A DNA stretch of 64,000 bases from Candidatus Nitrososphaera gargensis Ga9.2. GTDB taxonomy: Archaea; Thermoproteota; Nitrososphaeria; Nitrososphaerales; Nitrososphaeraceae. Made by a program: the position numbers and the translations under genes. Positions 1,903 to 60,709 of the stretch are shown piece by piece. The stretch lies in NCBI RefSeq assembly GCF_000303155.1, contig NC_018719.1, positions 806,001-870,000 on the forward strand, given 5' to 3'. The stretch's first letter is position 1, and each line of letters starts with the position of its first letter. The notes beneath the pieces are model-generated. The model did no database searches. It was not told the DNA's origin and worked only from the letters and a program-made list of their open reading frames with translations.

Positions 1903-3231
1903 CAGTACCTGGCAATTAGCCACCATCAATTATAACTGACCTGCTGTTTTTGATCTGTACCGAGTACACCGCGCCGTATTTCTGCTCCAGTCCCAGCCGC
2001 AGAAAAAGCAGCATATGAAAGTACGTAAATTCTGCATCGTATCTTCTCCCGTACCTTCCGCGCGTCGCCTTGCTGAGGTACTGCCACTTGATGTACACCC
2101 ACTCATTCTGTATAACAAGCGATGCCAGAACATAGAGGAAGCGCAGTGCTGGACTCCTGGATGACGTCCTGGCCCTGCTCTTTCCCATCGCCCTGTATGA
2201 CGATTCTATGCCAAATCTCCTCCGGTACTCGTCAAACATCCGCCCTACCGGGATATTGACAAGGCCTGCGGCATAGTACATGTACTGGACGCCGCGTTTC
2301 TTCCTGTACCTTTTCTTCCGGTATTTGGCAACGGCATACAGCCTGAATGTGCATTTCTCGCCGGTGGCAGAATCTGTCATTTCGCAGTCCGGTACGACGA
2401 AACTATCCCTTCTTTTCCGGGTCAGTCTGGATAACGTGCCGCCTTTCCTGCCTCTTGGAAAAGCGGCTATGATGTACGGGATACGCATGGAATTGAGGTA
2501 GCTCATTACAGCTGCTGTAAAGAACCCCTTGTCAAGGAACAGGCATTTTATCACGATGCTCGCCTTCTGTACCTCTGCAAGCAGGTACCTGACTACTCCA
2601 ACCAGTGCTTCCCCCTCCCGGATGTACCTGGTGGCCAAGGTGAACCTCCTTCCATGGAGCATCACGTAGGCGCTGGCGTACGTGAAAAAGTGGGTCGTGC
2701 CGCTCCTGGCCCTGCCGCGTCTGACATCCCCCTCATTCTCAGGCTCGCCGTGGTAGGGAACGTCTGTCATGTCGATGGCTATGTCGACAGCTCGATTGTG
2801 CAGGGTCTCCGCCACCCTTTTCTGCAGCAGCCTGTTGGCGGCCGACTGAATCCACGAAATGTCAATCTTGGACACGTGGTACTGGACATCCCTCCTGGAC
2901 GGGGTGCTGGCCAGAGTACAGCAGGCTTGTGTTATGGATGTCCCACCGGTACAGGCATAGACCACAGAATTTGCTATATCGACTACTGAATACCGCCTTT
3001 TTCTGAAATCGGCTGGCCTGAAGACTGGCAGCAGTACGTTTACTGCATTACCAAGTACTCTCTCATGTGTCAAAAAATGTTTGTCGGTAGGTTCTTGGGT
3101 AAATGTACCGCACTGGATTGGCAGGGTTCTCACAAACCATGCGTCTCTGGTGGCAGCTTTAGCTGTTGCCAGGGACGCCCTTCAACAATCGACTAAAAAG
3201 CTGCTCACAAACTCGTTATTGCCAAGTACTG
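1903..3231 (-). mobile_element. ISH3-like insertion sequence, copy 1
   Basis: A 1329-bp element bounded by imperfect inverted repeats (left CAGTACCTGGCAAT; right end reads CAGTACTTGGCAAT on the other strand) and flanked by a 5-bp direct repeat AATAT at 1898-1902 and 3232-3236. It carries one transposase gene. Two further copies of the same length and encoded protein lie at 23799-25127 and 59381-60709. The 5-bp duplication, size and transposase type agree with the archaeal ISH3 family. It sits between a TnpB relic and a broken recombinase gene; no interrupted gene could be reconstructed here. Confidence 0.92.
1916..3133 (-). CDS. ISH3-like DDE transposase, copy 1
   Basis: A 405-residue transposase. 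Likely catalytic acidic residues are in AIDMTDVPYHG (about residue 118), LFLDKGFF (about 201) and YRRRFGIESSYR (about 305), the order D-D-E of the IS4-like/ISH3 group with the YREK-like helix around the Glu. The N-terminal 110 residues resemble the helical DNA-binding region of this family. The frame is undamaged and the protein is identical to the copies at 23812-25029 and 59394-60611, so it is probably active. Antisense reading frames inside it recur in all three copies only because the DNA is identical. Confidence 0.92.
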   Translation of the reverse strand: MRTLPIQCGTFTQEPTDKHFLTHERVLGNAVNVLLPVFRPADFRKRRYSVVDIANSVVYACTGGTSITQACCTLASTPSRRDVQYHVSKIDISWIQSAANRLLQKRVAETLHNRAVDIAIDMTDVPYHGEPENEGDVRRGRARSGTTHFFTYASAYVMLHGRRFTLATRYIREGEALVGVVRYLLAEVQKASIVIKCLFLDKGFFTAAVMSYLNSMRIPYIIAAFPRGRKGGTLSRLTRKRRDSFVVPDCEMTDSATGEKCTFRLYAVAKYRKKRYRKKRGVQYMYYAAGLVNIPVGRMFDEYRRRFGIESSYRAMGKSRARTSSRSPALRFLYVLASLVIQNEWVYIKWQYLSKATRGRYGRRYDAEFTYFHMLLFLRLGLEQKYGAVYSVQIKNSRSVIIDGG

Positions 3232-14690: not shown

Positions 14691-15869
14691 TCAGTGAACT
14701 ACTATCGGACTTGTCCGATAGCCTCTTCTTGTTCCTGCTTCAGCGACCGCTGTTGTACGATCTCTACAGGCGTGTAACTTCCCGGCGTTCCACCGGTAGT
14801 AGCGGAGCAGTAGTAATAGCAACAACAACGACAACATCATCAGCGATTCCCGCCCTCGCTTAAGGATGTTGATTGCAGCGTTGTAGTCCCTGTCAAGTAC
14901 TGCTCTGCATTTTGGACATGAATGCGTTCTTACAGCCAATGACTTTGGTACGGTATGCCCACACCTTGAGCAGTCAACCGAGGAATATGCAGGCTCTACT
15001 TCAACAACGCGGTTGGCCTTGTACTGCAGCATATTTTTAAAAGTAGACCAGCTTGCGTCCAAGATTTTGCGTGCAAGCCGGTGGTTCTTGGTCATGTTCA
15101 TTACCCGCAATTTCTCCAAGAATATGAGATCATAGCGGCTGCTGTAGTACATTGTTGATGTCTTGTGCAGGAAATCGTGGCGCTTATTATGGATGCGTTC
15201 GTACAATCTGGCAAGCATGTGTCTTGCTTTCTCCCGGTTGCTGCTGCCTGTCTGCCTTCTAGATACCCTCCTGTGAGCTTTTCTCAATGGCCTGAGCATC
15301 TTTGTGAGAAGCTGCGGATTGTCTTCAACGTGGTTGTCGGAGTCATGGCAGAACTTGGTAATTCCAACATCTATACCCACAGGCTTTCTATACTTGATTA
15401 AGGTTGAGTACATCCTGCGCAGTAGCTGGCATGCCGCAACTGCGTACCATTTTGAATTCTTCCTGCATATTGTAACCTGCTTGACGTTTACCGGCTTTCT
15501 ATGGAGTACAATTCTTATGCTGCCTATCTTGGAGAGCGACAGCCTGTTGTTGTTCTCAAGTCTAAAGCCGGACTGGCTGTAGGTAAATGAGTTGAAATCA
15601 TCATGTTTCCGGTATGACCGCCTGCCTTTGGCAGCCTTTCTAGCTGCTGCAACCTGCTTTGCTACCATCTGAAGCATCTTGGAATGGTAGTATTTGCGAA
15701 GCCATGGATGCTGCTCTTTTAATTCGGTCAAGGCATAGTTCATATCATATTCTGACATTGGCGGGATTGAAAGAAAGTAGTTGTATATCCACCTGCAGCC
15801 GTCAAGGGTTTGATCTAACACGAGCTCTTGCTCTTTCGTTGGATATAGGCGGAACTTGTAGTTGAGCAT
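14691..15869 (-). CDS. tnpB: TnpB RNA-guided nuclease family protein, copy A (intact)
   Basis: A 392-residue TnpB with all expected parts: N-terminal MLNYKFRLYPTKEQE, RuvC-I Asp in GIDVGIT, RuvC-II Glu in LIFLEKL, zinc ribbon CSRCG...CPKC, and RuvC-III Asp in LDRDYNAA. TnpB proteins are RNA-guided DNA nucleases, ancestors of Cas12, that use an omega RNA overlapping the 3' end of tnpB and the element right end. The C-terminal tail after the zinc ribbon is low complexity (long Leu run) and the frame runs through the right-end hairpin; its stop lies just outside. A 326-bp core is identical to copy B at 37592-37917. Confidence 0.88.
   Translation of the reverse strand: MLNYKFRLYPTKEQELVLDQTLDGCRWIYNYFLSIPPMSEYDMNYALTELKEQHPWLRKYYHSKMLQMVAKQVAAARKAAKGRRSYRKHDDFNSFTYSQSGFRLENNNRLSLSKIGSIRIVLHRKPVNVKQVTICRKNSKWYAVAACQLLRRMYSTLIKYRKPVGIDVGITKFCHDSDNHVEDNPQLLTKMLRPLRKAHRRVSRRQTGSSNREKARHMLARLYERIHNKRHDFLHKTSTMYYSSRYDLIFLEKLRVMNMTKNHRLARKILDASWSTFKNMLQYKANRVVEVEPAYSSVDCSRCGHTVPKSLAVRTHSCPKCRAVLDRDYNAAINILKRGRESLMMLSLLLLLLLLRYYRWNAGKLHACRDRTTAVAEAGTRRGYRTSPIVVH
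14702..14721 (-). repeat. Right-end palindrome, probable 3' part of the omega RNA
   Basis: A perfect stem with arms CTATCGGAC and GTCCGATAG and a 2-nt loop, located at the 3' end of tnpB copy A. The same hairpin occurs at 38352-38371 in copy B. In IS200/IS605 elements this region is recognised by the transposase and forms the scaffold of the guide RNA, with the guide taken from DNA just outside the right end. Confidence 0.65.
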
Positions 15870-23798: not shown

Positions 23799-25127
23799 CA
23801 GTACCTGGCAATTAGCCACCATCAATTATAACTGACCTGCTGTTTTTGATCTGTACCGAGTACACCGCGCCGTATTTCTGCTCCAGTCCCAGCCGCAGAA
23901 AAAGCAGCATATGAAAGTACGTAAATTCTGCATCGTATCTTCTCCCGTACCTTCCGCGCGTCGCCTTGCTGAGGTACTGCCACTTGATGTACACCCACTC
24001 ATTCTGTATAACAAGCGATGCCAGAACATAGAGGAAGCGCAGTGCTGGACTCCTGGATGACGTCCTGGCCCTGCTCTTTCCCATCGCCCTGTATGACGAT
24101 TCTATGCCAAATCTCCTCCGGTACTCGTCAAACATCCGCCCTACCGGGATATTGACAAGGCCTGCGGCATAGTACATGTACTGGACGCCGCGTTTCTTCC
24201 TGTACCTTTTCTTCCGGTATTTGGCAACGGCATACAGCCTGAATGTGCATTTCTCGCCGGTGGCAGAATCTGTCATTTCGCAGTCCGGTACGACGAAACT
24301 ATCCCTTCTTTTCCGGGTCAGTCTGGATAACGTGCCGCCTTTCCTGCCTCTTGGAAAAGCGGCTATGATGTACGGGATACGCATGGAATTGAGGTAGCTC
24401 ATTACAGCTGCTGTAAAGAACCCCTTGTCAAGGAACAGGCATTTTATCACGATGCTCGCCTTCTGTACCTCTGCAAGCAGGTACCTGACTACTCCAACCA
24501 GTGCTTCCCCCTCCCGGATGTACCTGGTGGCCAAGGTGAACCTCCTTCCATGGAGCATCACGTAGGCGCTGGCGTACGTGAAAAAGTGGGTCGTGCCGCT
24601 CCTGGCCCTGCCGCGTCTGACATCCCCCTCATTCTCAGGCTCGCCGTGGTAGGGAACGTCTGTCATGTCGATGGCTATGTCGACAGCTCGATTGTGCAGG
24701 GTCTCCGCCACCCTTTTCTGCAGCAGCCTGTTGGCGGCCGACTGAATCCACGAAATGTCAATCTTGGACACGTGGTACTGGACATCCCTCCTGGACGGGG
24801 TGCTGGCCAGAGTACAGCAGGCTTGTGTTATGGATGTCCCACCGGTACAGGCATAGACCACAGAATTTGCTATATCGACTACTGAATACCGCCTTTTTCT
24901 GAAATCGGCTGGCCTGAAGACTGGCAGCAGTACGTTTACTGCATTACCAAGTACTCTCTCATGTGTCAAAAAATGTTTGTCGGTAGGTTCTTGGGTAAAT
25001 GTACCGCACTGGATTGGCAGGGTTCTCACAAACCATGCGTCTCTGGTGGCAGCTTTAGCTGTTGCCAGGGACGCCCTTCAACAATCGACTAAAAAGCTGC
25101 TCACAAACTCGTTATTGCCAAGTACTG
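23799..25127 (-). mobile_element. ISH3-like insertion sequence, copy 2
   Basis: Same 1329-bp element as at 1903-3231, with the same ends, flanked by the 5-bp direct repeat ATAAT at 23794-23798 and 25128-25132. It interrupts an exported protein gene transcribed in the same direction as the transposase. Confidence 0.94.
23812..25029 (-). CDS. ISH3-like DDE transposase, copy 2
   Basis: Predicted protein identical over 405 residues to the copies at 1916-3133 and 59394-60611, with the same D-D-E residues and no damage. Identity in all reading frames of the element indicates transposition too recent for mutations to gather. Confidence 0.92.
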   Translation of the reverse strand: MRTLPIQCGTFTQEPTDKHFLTHERVLGNAVNVLLPVFRPADFRKRRYSVVDIANSVVYACTGGTSITQACCTLASTPSRRDVQYHVSKIDISWIQSAANRLLQKRVAETLHNRAVDIAIDMTDVPYHGEPENEGDVRRGRARSGTTHFFTYASAYVMLHGRRFTLATRYIREGEALVGVVRYLLAEVQKASIVIKCLFLDKGFFTAAVMSYLNSMRIPYIIAAFPRGRKGGTLSRLTRKRRDSFVVPDCEMTDSATGEKCTFRLYAVAKYRKKRYRKKRGVQYMYYAAGLVNIPVGRMFDEYRRRFGIESSYRAMGKSRARTSSRSPALRFLYVLASLVIQNEWVYIKWQYLSKATRGRYGRRYDAEFTYFHMLLFLRLGLEQKYGAVYSVQIKNSRSVIIDGG

Positions 25128-36640: not shown

Positions 36641-37087
36641 GTGAGATATAGCAACCCGACCCCGACTGTAGATATCATACTTCAACAGGGTTCCAAGGTT
36701 TTGATGATAAGACGCAAGAAGGACCCATTCAAGGGACAGCTAGCCCTGCCCGGCGGCTTTGTCAACGAAGGCGAGACTGCCGAGGACGCCATGAAGCGGG
36801 AGGCTATGGAGGAGACGTCGCTTGAAGTTGAGCCGATCGACATCCTTGGAGTCTATTCAGACCCAAGACGCGATCCCCGCAAGCACATAATGAGCGTGGT
36901 CTTTGTCGGGATAATCATAGGTGGCTCTGGCAAGGCAGGCGACGACGCCGAGGGCATCGAATGGGTCGAGCTTGCAGACATTGAAAGGCAGCAGTTCGCG
37001 TTTGACCACATCACGATACTGCGCGACTACAAAAAGTGGAAGGCGTCTGGCGGGACCTTCTGGTCGACCAAGAGAAGAAATGAGTGA
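36641..37087 (+). CDS. Nudix hydrolase
   Basis: A 148-residue Nudix protein. The Nudix box GGFVNEGETAEDAMKREAMEETSLE matches Gx5Ex7REUxEExGU except for Ser in place of the last Gly-type position; it is preceded by GQLALP. KHIMSVVFVGII and the C-terminal FDHITILRDYKKW resemble ADP-ribose or nucleotide-sugar pyrophosphatases. GTG start at 36641. The stop codon TGA (37085-37087) is the first triplet of the TGAACTACTATCGG end of the adjoining TnpB element, so that insertion may have replaced the original stop. Confidence 0.88.
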   Translation: MRYSNPTPTVDIILQQGSKVLMIRRKKDPFKGQLALPGGFVNEGETAEDAMKREAMEETSLEVEPIDILGVYSDPRRDPRKHIMSVVFVGIIIGGSGKAGDDAEGIEWVELADIERQQFAFDHITILRDYKKWKASGGTFWSTKRRNE

Positions 37088-38379
37088 ACTACTATCGGAC
37101 AAGTCCGGTGGATGAATCGCCGTTATATCTTTAAAGAAACGTGGCGAGAAGTCCACCGGTCATAGATAGTCCGTGGATGAATCGCTGTAACATATTTTAG
37201 GTGGTACCGGTGAAATAGAAGCATACATACATACATGCTCAACTACAAGTTCCGCCTATATCCAACGAAAGAACAGGAGCTTGTACTGGAGCAGACTCTC
37301 GATGGCTGCAGGTGGGTGTACAACTACTTCTTCGACAAGAATATGTCAAAAGAGGATATGCAGTTTACTCTAGTTGAGTTGAAAGAGCAGCACCCTTGGC
37401 TTCGCAAATACTACCATTCCAAGATGCTTCAGATGGTAACACATCAGGTTGCAGCAGCTAGAAAGGCTTCCAAAGACAAGCTTCTTTCGTACAGAAAGAA
37501 TGAAGACTTCAACGCATTTACATACAACCAGTCTGGCTTTAAAATTGAAGAAGATGGAAAGCTCTACCTGTCAAAGATAGGCAGCATAAGGATTGTACTC
37601 CATAGAAAGCCGGTAAACGTCAAGCAGGTTACAATATGCAGGAAGAATTCAAAATGGTACGCAGTTGCGGCATGCCAGCTACTGCGCAGGATGTACTCAA
37701 CCTTAATCAAGTATAGAAAGCCTGTGGGTATAGATGTTGGAATTACCAAGTTCTGCCATGACTCCGACAACCACGTTGAAGACAATCCGCAGCTTCTCAC
37801 AAAGATGCTCAGGCCATTGAGAAAAGCTCACAGGAGGGTATCTAGAAGGCAGACAGGCAGCAGCAACCGGGAGAAAGCAAGACACATGCTTGCCAGATTG
37901 TACGAACGCATCCATAACAAGCGCCGTGACTTTCTACACAAGCTATCAGCGTACTATGCCAGCCGCTACGACCTGATATTCCTGGAAGGCCTGAAAGTAG
38001 CCAACCTCACAAGGAACCACCGGCTTGCACGCAAAATCCTGGACGCAAGCTGGTCTGCTTTTAAAAATATGCTGCAGTACAAGGCCAACCGCGTTGTTGA
38101 AGTAGAGCCAGCATATTCCTCGGTTGACTGCTCAAGGTGCGGCCATCCAGTACCAAAGTCACTTGTAGTACGTACGCATGTTTGTACAAAATGCAGAGCT
38201 GTGCTTGACAGAGAATACAACGCTACAATCAACATCCTCCAACGAGGGTTAGAATCGCTGATCATGTTGCTGTTACTACTACCGGTGGAACGCCGGGAAG
38301 TTACGCCTGTAGAGATTCAACATGAGTCTGTGAAGCAGGAAGAAGAAGAGGCTATCGGACAAGTCCGATAGTAGTTCAT
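37085..38379 (+). mobile_element. IS200/IS605-type TnpB-only element, copy B, with a compound left end
   Basis: Right end: palindrome at 38352-38371 followed by TAGTTCA, as in copy A. Left side: two left-end-like segments in tandem. The inner one (about 37141-37200, GGCGAGAAGTCCACCGG... then GTGGATGAATCGCT) matches copy A's left end. The outer one (37085-37125) starts TGAACTACTATCGGAC, an inverted match to the right-end terminus, and runs into GGTGGATGAATCGCC. The element therefore has inverted termini not normal for this group. No tnpA is present. Confidence 0.7.
37235..38371 (+). CDS. tnpB: TnpB family protein, copy B, RuvC-III Asp replaced by Glu
   Basis: A 378-residue TnpB with RuvC-I Asp in GIDVGIT, RuvC-II Glu in LIFLEGL and a zinc ribbon CSRCG...CTKC. 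The RuvC-III motif is LDREYNAT where copy A and the relic at 1416 have LDRDYNA: the Asp just before YNA, expected to hold the catalytic metal, is Glu (codon GAA at about 38213). Cleavage may be weakened or lost while RNA-guided binding stays possible. 326 bp (37592-37917) are identical to copy A (15187-15512), yet both flanks differ, showing recent gene conversion. The stop lies in the right-end hairpin. Confidence 0.87.
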   Translation: MLNYKFRLYPTKEQELVLEQTLDGCRWVYNYFFDKNMSKEDMQFTLVELKEQHPWLRKYYHSKMLQMVTHQVAAARKASKDKLLSYRKNEDFNAFTYNQSGFKIEEDGKLYLSKIGSIRIVLHRKPVNVKQVTICRKNSKWYAVAACQLLRRMYSTLIKYRKPVGIDVGITKFCHDSDNHVEDNPQLLTKMLRPLRKAHRRVSRRQTGSSNREKARHMLARLYERIHNKRRDFLHKLSAYYASRYDLIFLEGLKVANLTRNHRLARKILDASWSAFKNMLQYKANRVVEVEPAYSSVDCSRCGHPVPKSLVVRTHVCTKCRAVLDREYNATINILQRGLESLIMLLLLLPVERREVTPVEIQHESVKQEEEEAIGQVR

Positions 38380-38395
38380 AACCCTAGCTGTTGCA

Positions 38396-38779
38396 ATGGA
38401 AGGTAGTAATTTGCGCGCCGAGAAGGACATTAGGCTCAGGATAGACCTGCTGGAAGGCCAGTCAAGCTCTATCGCCAAGATGCTGGCCAAGGCCATCCGC
38501 GACCACAACGAAGCCGCATTCAAGGAATACTCCGAGCGCCTTGCAGCCAACCGCAGCAGGGTCGAAGAGCTACTGTGGGTCTTGGGAGAAAAGGCCGGCC
38601 AGAGCGTGCTCGACCTTCAGGTTGCCGCTGCTAGTAATAACAGCAGCCTGTCTGTCAAGGAGGTCATTGAAAAACTCAAGGCTGGCGAGCTAAAGATGGA
38701 TGATCTGTCGCCAGACGCACAGGCTATGGTCCGGAAAGGAGCGCTAGAGATGAAAAATAACAACGCCCACAAGGATTGA
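38396..38779 (+). CDS. Uncharacterised helical protein
   Basis: A 127-residue soluble, mostly helical protein (EKDIRLRIDLLEGQSSSIAKML, RLAANRSRVEELLWVLGEKA). No family recognised. A Ser/Asn-rich hinge (ASNNSSLS) precedes a C-terminal VKEVIEKLKAGELKMDDLSPDAQ segment. It begins 18 bp after the TnpB element and ends 97 bp before sufB, which has its own TATA box, so it is probably not part of the suf transcript. The element may have displaced its original promoter. Confidence 0.55.
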   Translation: MEGSNLRAEKDIRLRIDLLEGQSSSIAKMLAKAIRDHNEAAFKEYSERLAANRSRVEELLWVLGEKAGQSVLDLQVAAASNNSSLSVKEVIEKLKAGELKMDDLSPDAQAMVRKGALEMKNNNAHKD

Positions 38780-59380: not shown

Positions 59381-60709
59381 CAGTACCTGGCAATTAGCCA
59401 CCATCAATTATAACTGACCTGCTGTTTTTGATCTGTACCGAGTACACCGCGCCGTATTTCTGCTCCAGTCCCAGCCGCAGAAAAAGCAGCATATGAAAGT
59501 ACGTAAATTCTGCATCGTATCTTCTCCCGTACCTTCCGCGCGTCGCCTTGCTGAGGTACTGCCACTTGATGTACACCCACTCATTCTGTATAACAAGCGA
59601 TGCCAGAACATAGAGGAAGCGCAGTGCTGGACTCCTGGATGACGTCCTGGCCCTGCTCTTTCCCATCGCCCTGTATGACGATTCTATGCCAAATCTCCTC
59701 CGGTACTCGTCAAACATCCGCCCTACCGGGATATTGACAAGGCCTGCGGCATAGTACATGTACTGGACGCCGCGTTTCTTCCTGTACCTTTTCTTCCGGT
59801 ATTTGGCAACGGCATACAGCCTGAATGTGCATTTCTCGCCGGTGGCAGAATCTGTCATTTCGCAGTCCGGTACGACGAAACTATCCCTTCTTTTCCGGGT
59901 CAGTCTGGATAACGTGCCGCCTTTCCTGCCTCTTGGAAAAGCGGCTATGATGTACGGGATACGCATGGAATTGAGGTAGCTCATTACAGCTGCTGTAAAG
60001 AACCCCTTGTCAAGGAACAGGCATTTTATCACGATGCTCGCCTTCTGTACCTCTGCAAGCAGGTACCTGACTACTCCAACCAGTGCTTCCCCCTCCCGGA
60101 TGTACCTGGTGGCCAAGGTGAACCTCCTTCCATGGAGCATCACGTAGGCGCTGGCGTACGTGAAAAAGTGGGTCGTGCCGCTCCTGGCCCTGCCGCGTCT
60201 GACATCCCCCTCATTCTCAGGCTCGCCGTGGTAGGGAACGTCTGTCATGTCGATGGCTATGTCGACAGCTCGATTGTGCAGGGTCTCCGCCACCCTTTTC
60301 TGCAGCAGCCTGTTGGCGGCCGACTGAATCCACGAAATGTCAATCTTGGACACGTGGTACTGGACATCCCTCCTGGACGGGGTGCTGGCCAGAGTACAGC
60401 AGGCTTGTGTTATGGATGTCCCACCGGTACAGGCATAGACCACAGAATTTGCTATATCGACTACTGAATACCGCCTTTTTCTGAAATCGGCTGGCCTGAA
60501 GACTGGCAGCAGTACGTTTACTGCATTACCAAGTACTCTCTCATGTGTCAAAAAATGTTTGTCGGTAGGTTCTTGGGTAAATGTACCGCACTGGATTGGC
60601 AGGGTTCTCACAAACCATGCGTCTCTGGTGGCAGCTTTAGCTGTTGCCAGGGACGCCCTTCAACAATCGACTAAAAAGCTGCTCACAAACTCGTTATTGC
60701 CAAGTACTG
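59381..60709 (-). mobile_element. ISH3-like insertion sequence, copy 3
   Basis: Third copy of the 1329-bp element, flanked by ATTAT at 59376-59380 and 60710-60714. It lies antisense inside the patatin gene. An open frame starting in the IS (60559) runs into the patatin 3' part. Confidence 0.94.
59394..60611 (-). CDS. ISH3-like DDE transposase, copy 3
   Basis: Identical in protein to the copies at 1916-3133 and 23812-25029, full length with D-D-E residues in place. Together the three copies are the same length and carry the same termini, consistent with recent activity. Confidence 0.92.
   Translation of the reverse strand: MRTLPIQCGTFTQEPTDKHFLTHERVLGNAVNVLLPVFRPADFRKRRYSVVDIANSVVYACTGGTSITQACCTLASTPSRRDVQYHVSKIDISWIQSAANRLLQKRVAETLHNRAVDIAIDMTDVPYHGEPENEGDVRRGRARSGTTHFFTYASAYVMLHGRRFTLATRYIREGEALVGVVRYLLAEVQKASIVIKCLFLDKGFFTAAVMSYLNSMRIPYIIAAFPRGRKGGTLSRLTRKRRDSFVVPDCEMTDSATGEKCTFRLYAVAKYRKKRYRKKRGVQYMYYAAGLVNIPVGRMFDEYRRRFGIESSYRAMGKSRARTSSRSPALRFLYVLASLVIQNEWVYIKWQYLSKATRGRYGRRYDAEFTYFHMLLFLRLGLEQKYGAVYSVQIKNSRSVIIDGG

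What the first reader, a model, noticed from the sequence alone, without database searches (positions are those of the whole stretch)
38203..38225. RuvC-III Asp to Glu change in TnpB copy B
Copy B reads LDREYNAT, whereas copy A and the relic at 1416 read LDRDYNA. The Asp before YNA is expected to be a catalytic metal ligand of the RuvC site. Glu there may slow or abolish cutting while leaving RNA-guided binding, comparable with nuclease-dead TnpB-like repressors described in bacteria. The rest of copy B is intact, so it is not simply a pseudogene.
Basis: partly seen in the sequence, partly recalled or inferred. Interest (0 to 1): 0.55.

Follow-up and report, generated by a model that had tools for sequence, protein, structure and literature searches.

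The report
TnpB copy with one changed catalytic residue
One of about ten closely related copies of a transposon-borne RNA-guided DNA-cutting enzyme in an archaeal genome carries a slightly different acid at one of its three metal-holding positions, which most likely weakens its cutting; it looks like a single private mutation in a mobile element rather than a new gene regulator.

Summary
Copy B (window 37235-38371, 378 aa, open frame) has GAA/Glu327 where ISDra2 TnpB has catalytic Asp361. The other two catalytic acids (Asp167, Glu251) and the four zinc cysteines are intact. Copy A and the relic have Asp there, though the relic reads IDRDYNA.

The Glu is private and rare: 1 of 21 Asp-or-Glu motif places in this genome, 1 of 162 in 398 Thermoproteota genomes. 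Four viral TnpB-like ORFs with Glu were found; three of the four lack the RuvC-I Asp, against 0 of 99 Asp-bearing ones. So Glu here tends to go with lost nuclease sites; that is not proof for B.

The 'nuclease-dead repressor' reading is not supported. B keeps transposon ends and a right-end hairpin. It is a lineage-specific insertion, absent from the same place in nine genomes of the genus. Its guide matches well only its own flank.

Most likely B is an ordinary tnpB-only IS200/IS605-type element with a recent, probably crippling point mutation; its right end also carries a private change. Cleavage was not testable here; Glu might retain activity.

The parts
37235..38371 (+). tnpB copy B, 378 aa, open frame; its stop codon lies at the end of the right-end hairpin
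   Evidence: Pfam OrfB_IS605, Cas12f1-like_TNB and HTH_OrfB_IS605; NCBIfam guided_TnpB 225 bits against cut-off 100; AlphaFold2 mean pLDDT 89.3; best two Foldseek matches in the PDB are ISDra2 TnpB, 8h1j and 8exa
38213..38215 (+). GAA, Glu327, at the RuvC-III catalytic position (ISDra2 D361); second residue of the C-terminal helix 326-348 in the model
37733..37735 (+). GAT, Asp167, RuvC-I catalytic position (intact)
37985..37987 (+). GAA, Glu251, RuvC-II catalytic position (intact)
37135..38379 (+). inferred extent of the element: left end (starts AGAAACGTGGCGAGAAG) to right end (...GTAGTTCAT)
   Evidence: comparison of left and right ends of sister copies by eye, coordinates
37130..37134 (+). 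TTTAA just left of the element, inferred TAM/target site (TTTAT and CTTAT in two sisters with the same kind of left end)
   Evidence: inferred from three copies only
38279..38316 (+). nucleotide block conserved among the close copies, also in copy A where the reading frame is shifted; taken as omega-RNA scaffold (inference)
38352..38371 (+). right-end hairpin CTATCGGACAAGTCCGATAG
   Evidence: 14 sequences, 8 pairs, 112 of 112 cells paired, 27 cells changed on both sides, covariation 0.692 against at most 0.176 with slid partners; two of the five measures do not exceed the shuffles
38371..38379 (+). right-end terminus GTAGTTCAT; the other 14 right ends printed read GTAGTTCAC
   Evidence: 14 of 15 C, B alone T
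38380..38397 (+). predicted guide (flank after the right end), AACCCTAGCTGTTGCAAT
   Evidence: position by analogy with ISDra2; genome search
37085..37106 (-). fragment resembling an inverted right end, followed by part of another left end, left of the element: probably debris of another insertion
   Evidence: by eye
14691..15869 (-). tnpB copy A (Asp at RuvC-III; C-terminal tail frame-shifted relative to the family)

Best explanation
Copy B is an ordinary tnpB-only (IS1341-like; label recalled) member of an IS200/IS605-type element family with about ten close copies in this genome. It inserted next to a TTTAA site between a Nudix gene and a small conserved gene. Its TnpB would use an omega-RNA made from its own 3' end and right end, guided by the flanking 16-20 nt, to recognise the TAM-flanked empty site. 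A recent single-base change (GAC or GAT to GAA) replaced the RuvC-III Asp with Glu. The longer side chain most likely misplaces a metal ion and strongly lowers DNA cutting, while RNA and DNA binding stay intact. The right end also carries a private change, and the two Y1 transposase genes found in the genome are broken, so B is probably a stranded element beginning to lose function and not a domesticated regulator. Shown: the substitution, its rarity, the intact remaining site, the element anatomy and the lineage-specific insertion. Inferred: the effect on cutting, omega-RNA expression and loss of function by drift.
For: Position equals ISDra2 D361. Private to B: 1 of 21 Asp-or-Glu motif places in the genome and 1 of 162 in 398 Thermoproteota genomes (sums checked); 0 Glu places against 125 Asp places in the 31 genomes of the family of G425. 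Broken sister copies with stops still keep Asp. Viral TnpB-like ORFs: 3 of 4 with Glu lack the RuvC-I Asp, 0 of 99 with Asp do. Transposon ends and a covarying right-end hairpin. Right end TTCAT in B, TTCAC in 14 of 15. Nine other genomes of the genus (of 17 others searched; 8 gave no match) have Nudix and the next gene adjacent with no tnpB. Both Y1 TnpA genes found are broken. Pairwise dN/dS of B with nine sisters 0.12-0.25, near the 0.10-0.16 of seven chosen sister pairs, so the body evolved under constraint and the change is late. Analogy: in piggyBac (a DDD transposase), D447E lowered excision from 1.40e-2 to 4.44e-5 in one assay and from 3.15e-3 to 2.40e-4 in the other (PMC2533014, passages with table).
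Against: No cleavage data. In RNase H-like enzymes the third catalytic residue lies in a helix, can be D, E or H in enzymes with RNase H-like helix orientation, and helix residues are described as seeming less critical; for resolvase-like orientation D is typical (PMC3985635, passages). In piggyBac, D450E was moderately tolerated, and the table as held gives D268E an odd value above the control in one assay. One viral TnpB (L107) has the same D-E-E combination. B's frame is open and pairwise dN/dS shows no clear relaxation. A relative in another genome also seems to have TTCAT at its end, by a loose search (L045).
Confidence: 0.62

Rival explanations
1. Glu327 still holds the metal and B cuts DNA at a useful rate; the change is a near-neutral active-site variant, like the third Glu of DDE transposases and integrases (comparison recalled).
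For: Frame and other catalytic residues intact; third position can be D, E or H in parts of the superfamily (PMC3985635, passages); one viral TnpB (L107) with D-E-E; dN/dS of B near that of its sisters.
Against: Glu is absent from 161 other archaeal motif places although one base change would make it; in viral ORFs it goes with loss of the RuvC-I Asp; broken transposase genes and a changed right end.
Confidence: 0.2
2. B is a TldR-like RNA-guided repressor: nuclease lost, guided binding kept, used by the host or element to silence a target.
For: Only a catalytic ligand is changed in an open, confidently modelled TnpB; nuclease-dead TnpB-like proteins and Cas12m2 with an HDD site do silence by binding (PMC13418256 passages; PMC10442227 passages). 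One weak second match of TAM plus guide (2 of 18 mismatched) lies between two divergent ORFs at G000:C1:137780.
Against: Transposon ends retained; insertion absent from nine genomes of the genus; no relative sharing the change in 398 genomes; RuvC-I and RuvC-II intact. The 18-nt guide matches the genome at 0-2 mismatches only at its own flank; three places have 3 mismatches where the reversed control gives two. For TAM plus guide the reversed control gives four places at up to 3 mismatches, more than the two seen away from B, and about 0.22 places at up to 2 mismatches are expected by chance.
Confidence: 0.08
3. The GAA codon is a sequencing or assembly error, or a polymorphism of the sequenced culture.
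For: Single genome; one base; no reads available; sister copies that could be confused in assembly exist.
Against: A second private change lies four codons on (Thr331, Ala or Ser in the sisters) and a further one at the right end, so B differs from its sisters in several places; the assembly is a single contig.
Confidence: 0.06

Closest known systems
ISDra2 TnpB (Deinococcus radiodurans), IS200/IS605 family RNA-guided endonuclease
   Same: Same fold (E 2.4e-38 by sequence; Foldseek TM 0.72 normalised by the query, 28% identity), zinc ribbon, RuvC-I Asp and RuvC-II Glu, putative omega-RNA region at the 3' end
   Different: Glu in place of D361; no tnpA seen in the element
TldR, TnpB-like nuclease-dead repressors (Wiegand 2024, cited in PMC13418256; the original paper was not held)
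   Same: A TnpB-like protein with a changed RuvC catalytic residue
   Different: B keeps transposon ends and two of three catalytic residues, has no associated non-transposon gene that stays with it, no conserved locus and no convincing separate target
Cas12m2, HDD-type RuvC, silences by binding without cutting (PMC10442227, passages)
   Same: TnpB/Cas12 fold with a non-canonical RuvC triad
   Different: Cas12m2 has His-Asp-Asp and is a CRISPR effector; B differs from D-E-D only at RuvC-III and remains all-acidic (D-E-E)
Viral TnpB-like ORF L107 (IMG/VR contig 3300044455_000113)
   Same: D-E-E combination at the three catalytic positions
   Different: No close relative found in viral contigs, 26% identical to B in alignment A3

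Membership tests
TnpB of IS200/IS605-type elements | OrfB_IS605 and TNB zinc-ribbon domains with four cysteines | tested here: met
   CxxC...CxxC in B
TnpB of IS200/IS605-type elements | RuvC D-E-D catalytic triad | tested here: not met
   D167, E251, E327: third Asp replaced by Glu. The claim is therefore 'TnpB family protein with a variant site', not 'proven active TnpB nuclease'
TnpB of IS200/IS605-type elements | Left and right ends with subterminal hairpin and 3' omega-RNA region | tested here: met
   ends and hairpin; the omega-RNA itself is inferred from conservation, Rfam has no match at E up to 0.1
TnpB of IS200/IS605-type elements | RNA-guided, TAM-dependent DNA cleavage | not testable with these tools
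   needs a biochemical assay
TldR (nuclease-dead TnpB-like repressor) | Loss of nuclease catalytic residues | tested here: inconclusive
   one of three residues changed, to another acid
TldR (nuclease-dead TnpB-like repressor) | Genetic association with a non-transposon gene (described for many TldRs, PMC13418256 passages) | tested here: not met
   neighbours are a Nudix gene and a small conserved gene, adjacent to each other without tnpB in nine genomes of the genus
TldR (nuclease-dead TnpB-like repressor) | Guide matching a separate target, typically a promoter (typical target recalled) | tested here: inconclusive
   no match at 0-2 mismatches for the 18-nt guide away from its own flank; one TAM+guide place with 2 mismatches, near chance; a shorter seed could be missed
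TldR (nuclease-dead TnpB-like repressor) | Clade of related proteins sharing the inactivation | tested here: not met
   no other Glu among 162 places in 398 Thermoproteota genomes; the nearest relatives in the family that could be read have Asp

The most novel reading that the evidence does not exclude
B is a natural partial- or no-cut TnpB that shares its omega-RNA scaffold with about nine closely related sisters (79-86% identical). It could load their guide RNAs, or they its, and act in trans as a brake on the family's cutting: an early, single-mutation step from nuclease to RNA-guided binder caught before any other decay of the protein.
Probability: 0.05. Interest if true: 0.6.

Novelty: new member of a known kind. 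Interest (0 to 1): 0.2.

Why it matters
If Glu at this position removes cutting but not binding, a single base change is enough to turn a TnpB into a guided binder, which bears on how TldR and Cas12m-like proteins first arise. B and its sisters (79-86% identical over the matched parts, copy A sharing a 100% identical stretch) would be a clean natural pair to test that. As it stands it is one private substitution in one genome.

Tried and rejected
TldR-like regulator: rejected as the leading reading (no conserved locus, ends retained, no convincing target).

Pseudogene by frame damage: rejected; the frame is open, the model is confident (mean pLDDT 89.3) and pairwise dN/dS is near that of the sisters (seven of the 36 sister pairs were printed). 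Branch-specific selection was inconclusive: at columns invariant in the other copies B has 8 amino-acid changes and 1 synonymous change, but five of the eight lie in one block (alignment columns 48-56) that may have come in by recombination. B and A are 100% identical over four successive 75-nt bins and 62-98% in the others before the shifted tail, so the copies are mosaics and branch counts are not clean.

A clade of Glu-bearing TnpBs: searched for and not found in the 398 Thermoproteota genomes or the 31 of the family of G425; L107 has no close relative in viral contigs. Bacterial genomes were not sampled with an in-frame pattern, so nothing is claimed for them.

Rfam: no match at E up to 0.1. 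Literature searches (listings seen) showed no paper on this genome's TnpBs or on a natural Asp-to-Glu change at RuvC-III; the library lacks many papers, including the original TldR paper and the TnpB/Cas12 diversity paper.

A mistake: searches used a pattern one base short (out of frame). Repeated in frame for viral contigs. One search read only 80 of the 120 Asp loci held (71 proteins kept, 67 Asp and 4 Glu); one search repeated it with all 120 and its numbers are used here. An earlier count said 15 of 16 right ends carry C; the count is 14 of 15.

Full report
What is there. Copy B is a 378-residue TnpB at 37235-38371 on the + strand. The Glu codon is GAA at 38213-38215, residue 327. The motif LDREYNAT is at 38204-38227. 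HMMER aligns this Glu to D361 of ISDra2 TnpB, one of the three residues (D191, E278, D361) that form its catalytic centre (PMC10097598, passages). B's other two catalytic residues are Asp167 and Glu251. Pfam and NCBIfam place B in the TnpB family. An AlphaFold2 model from a 39-row alignment has mean pLDDT 89.3, with residue 327 in the first turn of the C-terminal helix 326-348. Its best two Foldseek matches in the PDB are ISDra2 TnpB structures, the third is ISFba1 TnpB.

How unusual. The window lies in a single-contig genome of 2,833,868 bp. From memory that size fits Candidatus Nitrososphaera gargensis; this was not confirmed (one search failed). The genome holds nine further copies 79-86% identical to B, two of them matching only from residue 28 or 29 on, plus more distant and broken ones. 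A motif pattern (C-x2-C-x4-DR-[codon GAN]-x-NA), which can see only Asp or Glu at the test codon, finds 21 places in this genome: 20 Asp and 1 Glu, B. It misses copies with another neighbouring residue, such as L005 and L007 (LDRDYNS), which also have Asp. Broken copies with in-frame stops still carry Asp. In 398 Thermoproteota genomes the same pattern gives 162 places in 47 genomes (tallies, summed), and the Glu-only pattern gives one, B. In the 31 genomes of the family of G425, Glu gives 0 and Asp 125. Of 26 loci of the own family read with a loose motif, the ones showing a TnpB motif have Asp; several showed none.

What Glu goes with elsewhere. Of 133 places read (8 Glu, 125 Asp), 103 lie in open frames of 200 aa or more: 4 Glu and 99 Asp; 4 Glu and 26 Asp places in shorter frames were dropped. 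The dropped Glu places are short ORFs of 54 and 121 aa, each seen twice, without TnpB features by eye. RuvC-I Asp is present in 99 of 99 Asp-bearing and 1 of 4 Glu-bearing proteins (L107; L100, L105 and L106 have His, Asn and His); Fisher p is 2.3e-5. RuvC-II reads Glu in 88 of the 99; the other 11 (10 Gly, 1 Ser) may have a relocated Glu or be misaligned. So Glu at RuvC-III mostly occurs where the nuclease site is already damaged, on four cases. L107 shares B's D-E-E combination and has no close relative in that collection.

Element anatomy. The right end of the copies carries an 8-bp hairpin with compensatory changes: 14 sequences, 112 of 112 cells paired, 27 cells changed on both sides, covariation 0.692 against at most 0.176 with slid partners. 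Three of five measures exceed all 500 shuffles; the number of pairs with a double change (241 of 500 shuffles reach it) and of further pair types (358 of 500) do not. The upstream block CTACCGGTGGAACGCCGGGAAGT... is kept at the nucleotide level even in copy A, whose frame is shifted there, which fits an omega-RNA. Of 15 right ends printed in 16 loci scanned, 14 read GTAGTTCAC; B alone reads GTAGTTCAT. In 11 relatives from other genomes of the family, a loose search found GTAGTTCAC in 4, GTTCAC or TTCAC in 3, TTCAT in 1 and nothing in 3. The left end of B starts after TTTAA, where two sisters with the same kind of left end have TTTAT and CTTAT (by eye). Left of that lies what looks like debris of another element (37085-37106 and following).

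Locus history. The gene after B has a match in 9 of the 17 other genomes of the genus searched; in all nine the stretch directly upstream is the Nudix gene with no tnpB between (the Nudix frame came out of the script in 5 and was recognised from the DNA in 4). Two read TTAAAACCC and one ATAAAACCC at the junction, matching B's flanks TTTAA | AACCC; the others vary. So B is a lineage-specific insertion and not a kept locus. The 18-nt guide matches this genome at up to 2 mismatches only at its own flank; three places have 3 mismatches where the reversed control gives two. TAM plus guide has one 2-mismatch place, between divergent ORFs at 137780, and one 3-mismatch place, against four control places; about 0.22 places at up to 2 mismatches are expected by chance. 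Both Y1 transposase genes found with PF01797 are broken in the same way, so the family may be unable to move by itself here.

Selection. Pairwise dN/dS of B against nine sisters is 0.12-0.25, and 0.10-0.16 for the seven sister pairs printed. B's sequence is a mosaic: four successive 75-nt bins are identical to copy A and the others are 62-98%, leaving out the shifted tail. The catalytic change therefore sits in a protein that was under constraint until recently.

Mechanism and verdict. A Glu at a two-metal RuvC site keeps the charge but moves the carboxylate. In piggyBac the authors conclude that Asp itself is required at D268, D346 and D447 (D447E 4.44e-5 against 1.40e-2, and 2.40e-4 against 3.15e-3 in a second assay), while D450E was moderately tolerated; the table as held also has a D268E value above the control in the second assay (PMC2533014, passages). 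A superfamily survey says the third residue lies in a helix, can be D, E or H in enzymes with RNase H-like helix orientation, is typically D in those with the resolvase-like orientation, and that helix residues seem less critical (PMC3985635, passages); I did not determine which orientation B has. I therefore put most weight on strongly reduced cutting by a private recent mutation, a fifth on useful residual cutting, and little on a regulator. Cas12m2 (HDD, PMC10442227, passages) and TldR (PMC13418256, passages) show that RuvC-defective relatives can silence by binding, so B may work like one in a test tube; on the features tested here it is not a member of the TldR group.

Noticed in passing
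G000:C1:693245-693603 and 2146720-2147080 (L228-L231): The two Y1 transposase genes found in the genome with PF01797 share the same in-frame TGA and a later frame break, so no intact IS200-type TnpA was found although several tnpB frames are open.
   Followed up: partly
L005 and L007 (G000:C1:65283-66428 and 59553-60680): Two tnpB copies with the same protein body carry different left ends and right-end hairpins, as if end modules were exchanged by recombination.
   Followed up: partly
window 14691-15869 (copy A): The C-terminal tail is frame-shifted relative to the family while the nucleotides of the putative omega-RNA region stay conserved.
   Followed up: partly
window 1916-3133, 23812-25029, 59394-60611 (minus strand): Three ORFs of the same length (405 aa, all GTG start); the first has a DDE_Tnp_1 match just below the Pfam cut-off: probably another multicopy IS.
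   Followed up: partly
L100:1224, L105:8213, L106:2725: Viral TnpB-like ORFs with DRE at RuvC-III and RuvC-I Asp replaced by His or Asn: candidate nuclease-dead phage proteins.
   Followed up: partly
G000:C1:137780-137797 (L248): A TTTAA-flanked place matching B's guide with two mismatches, between two divergent ORFs; close to chance expectation.
   Followed up: partly
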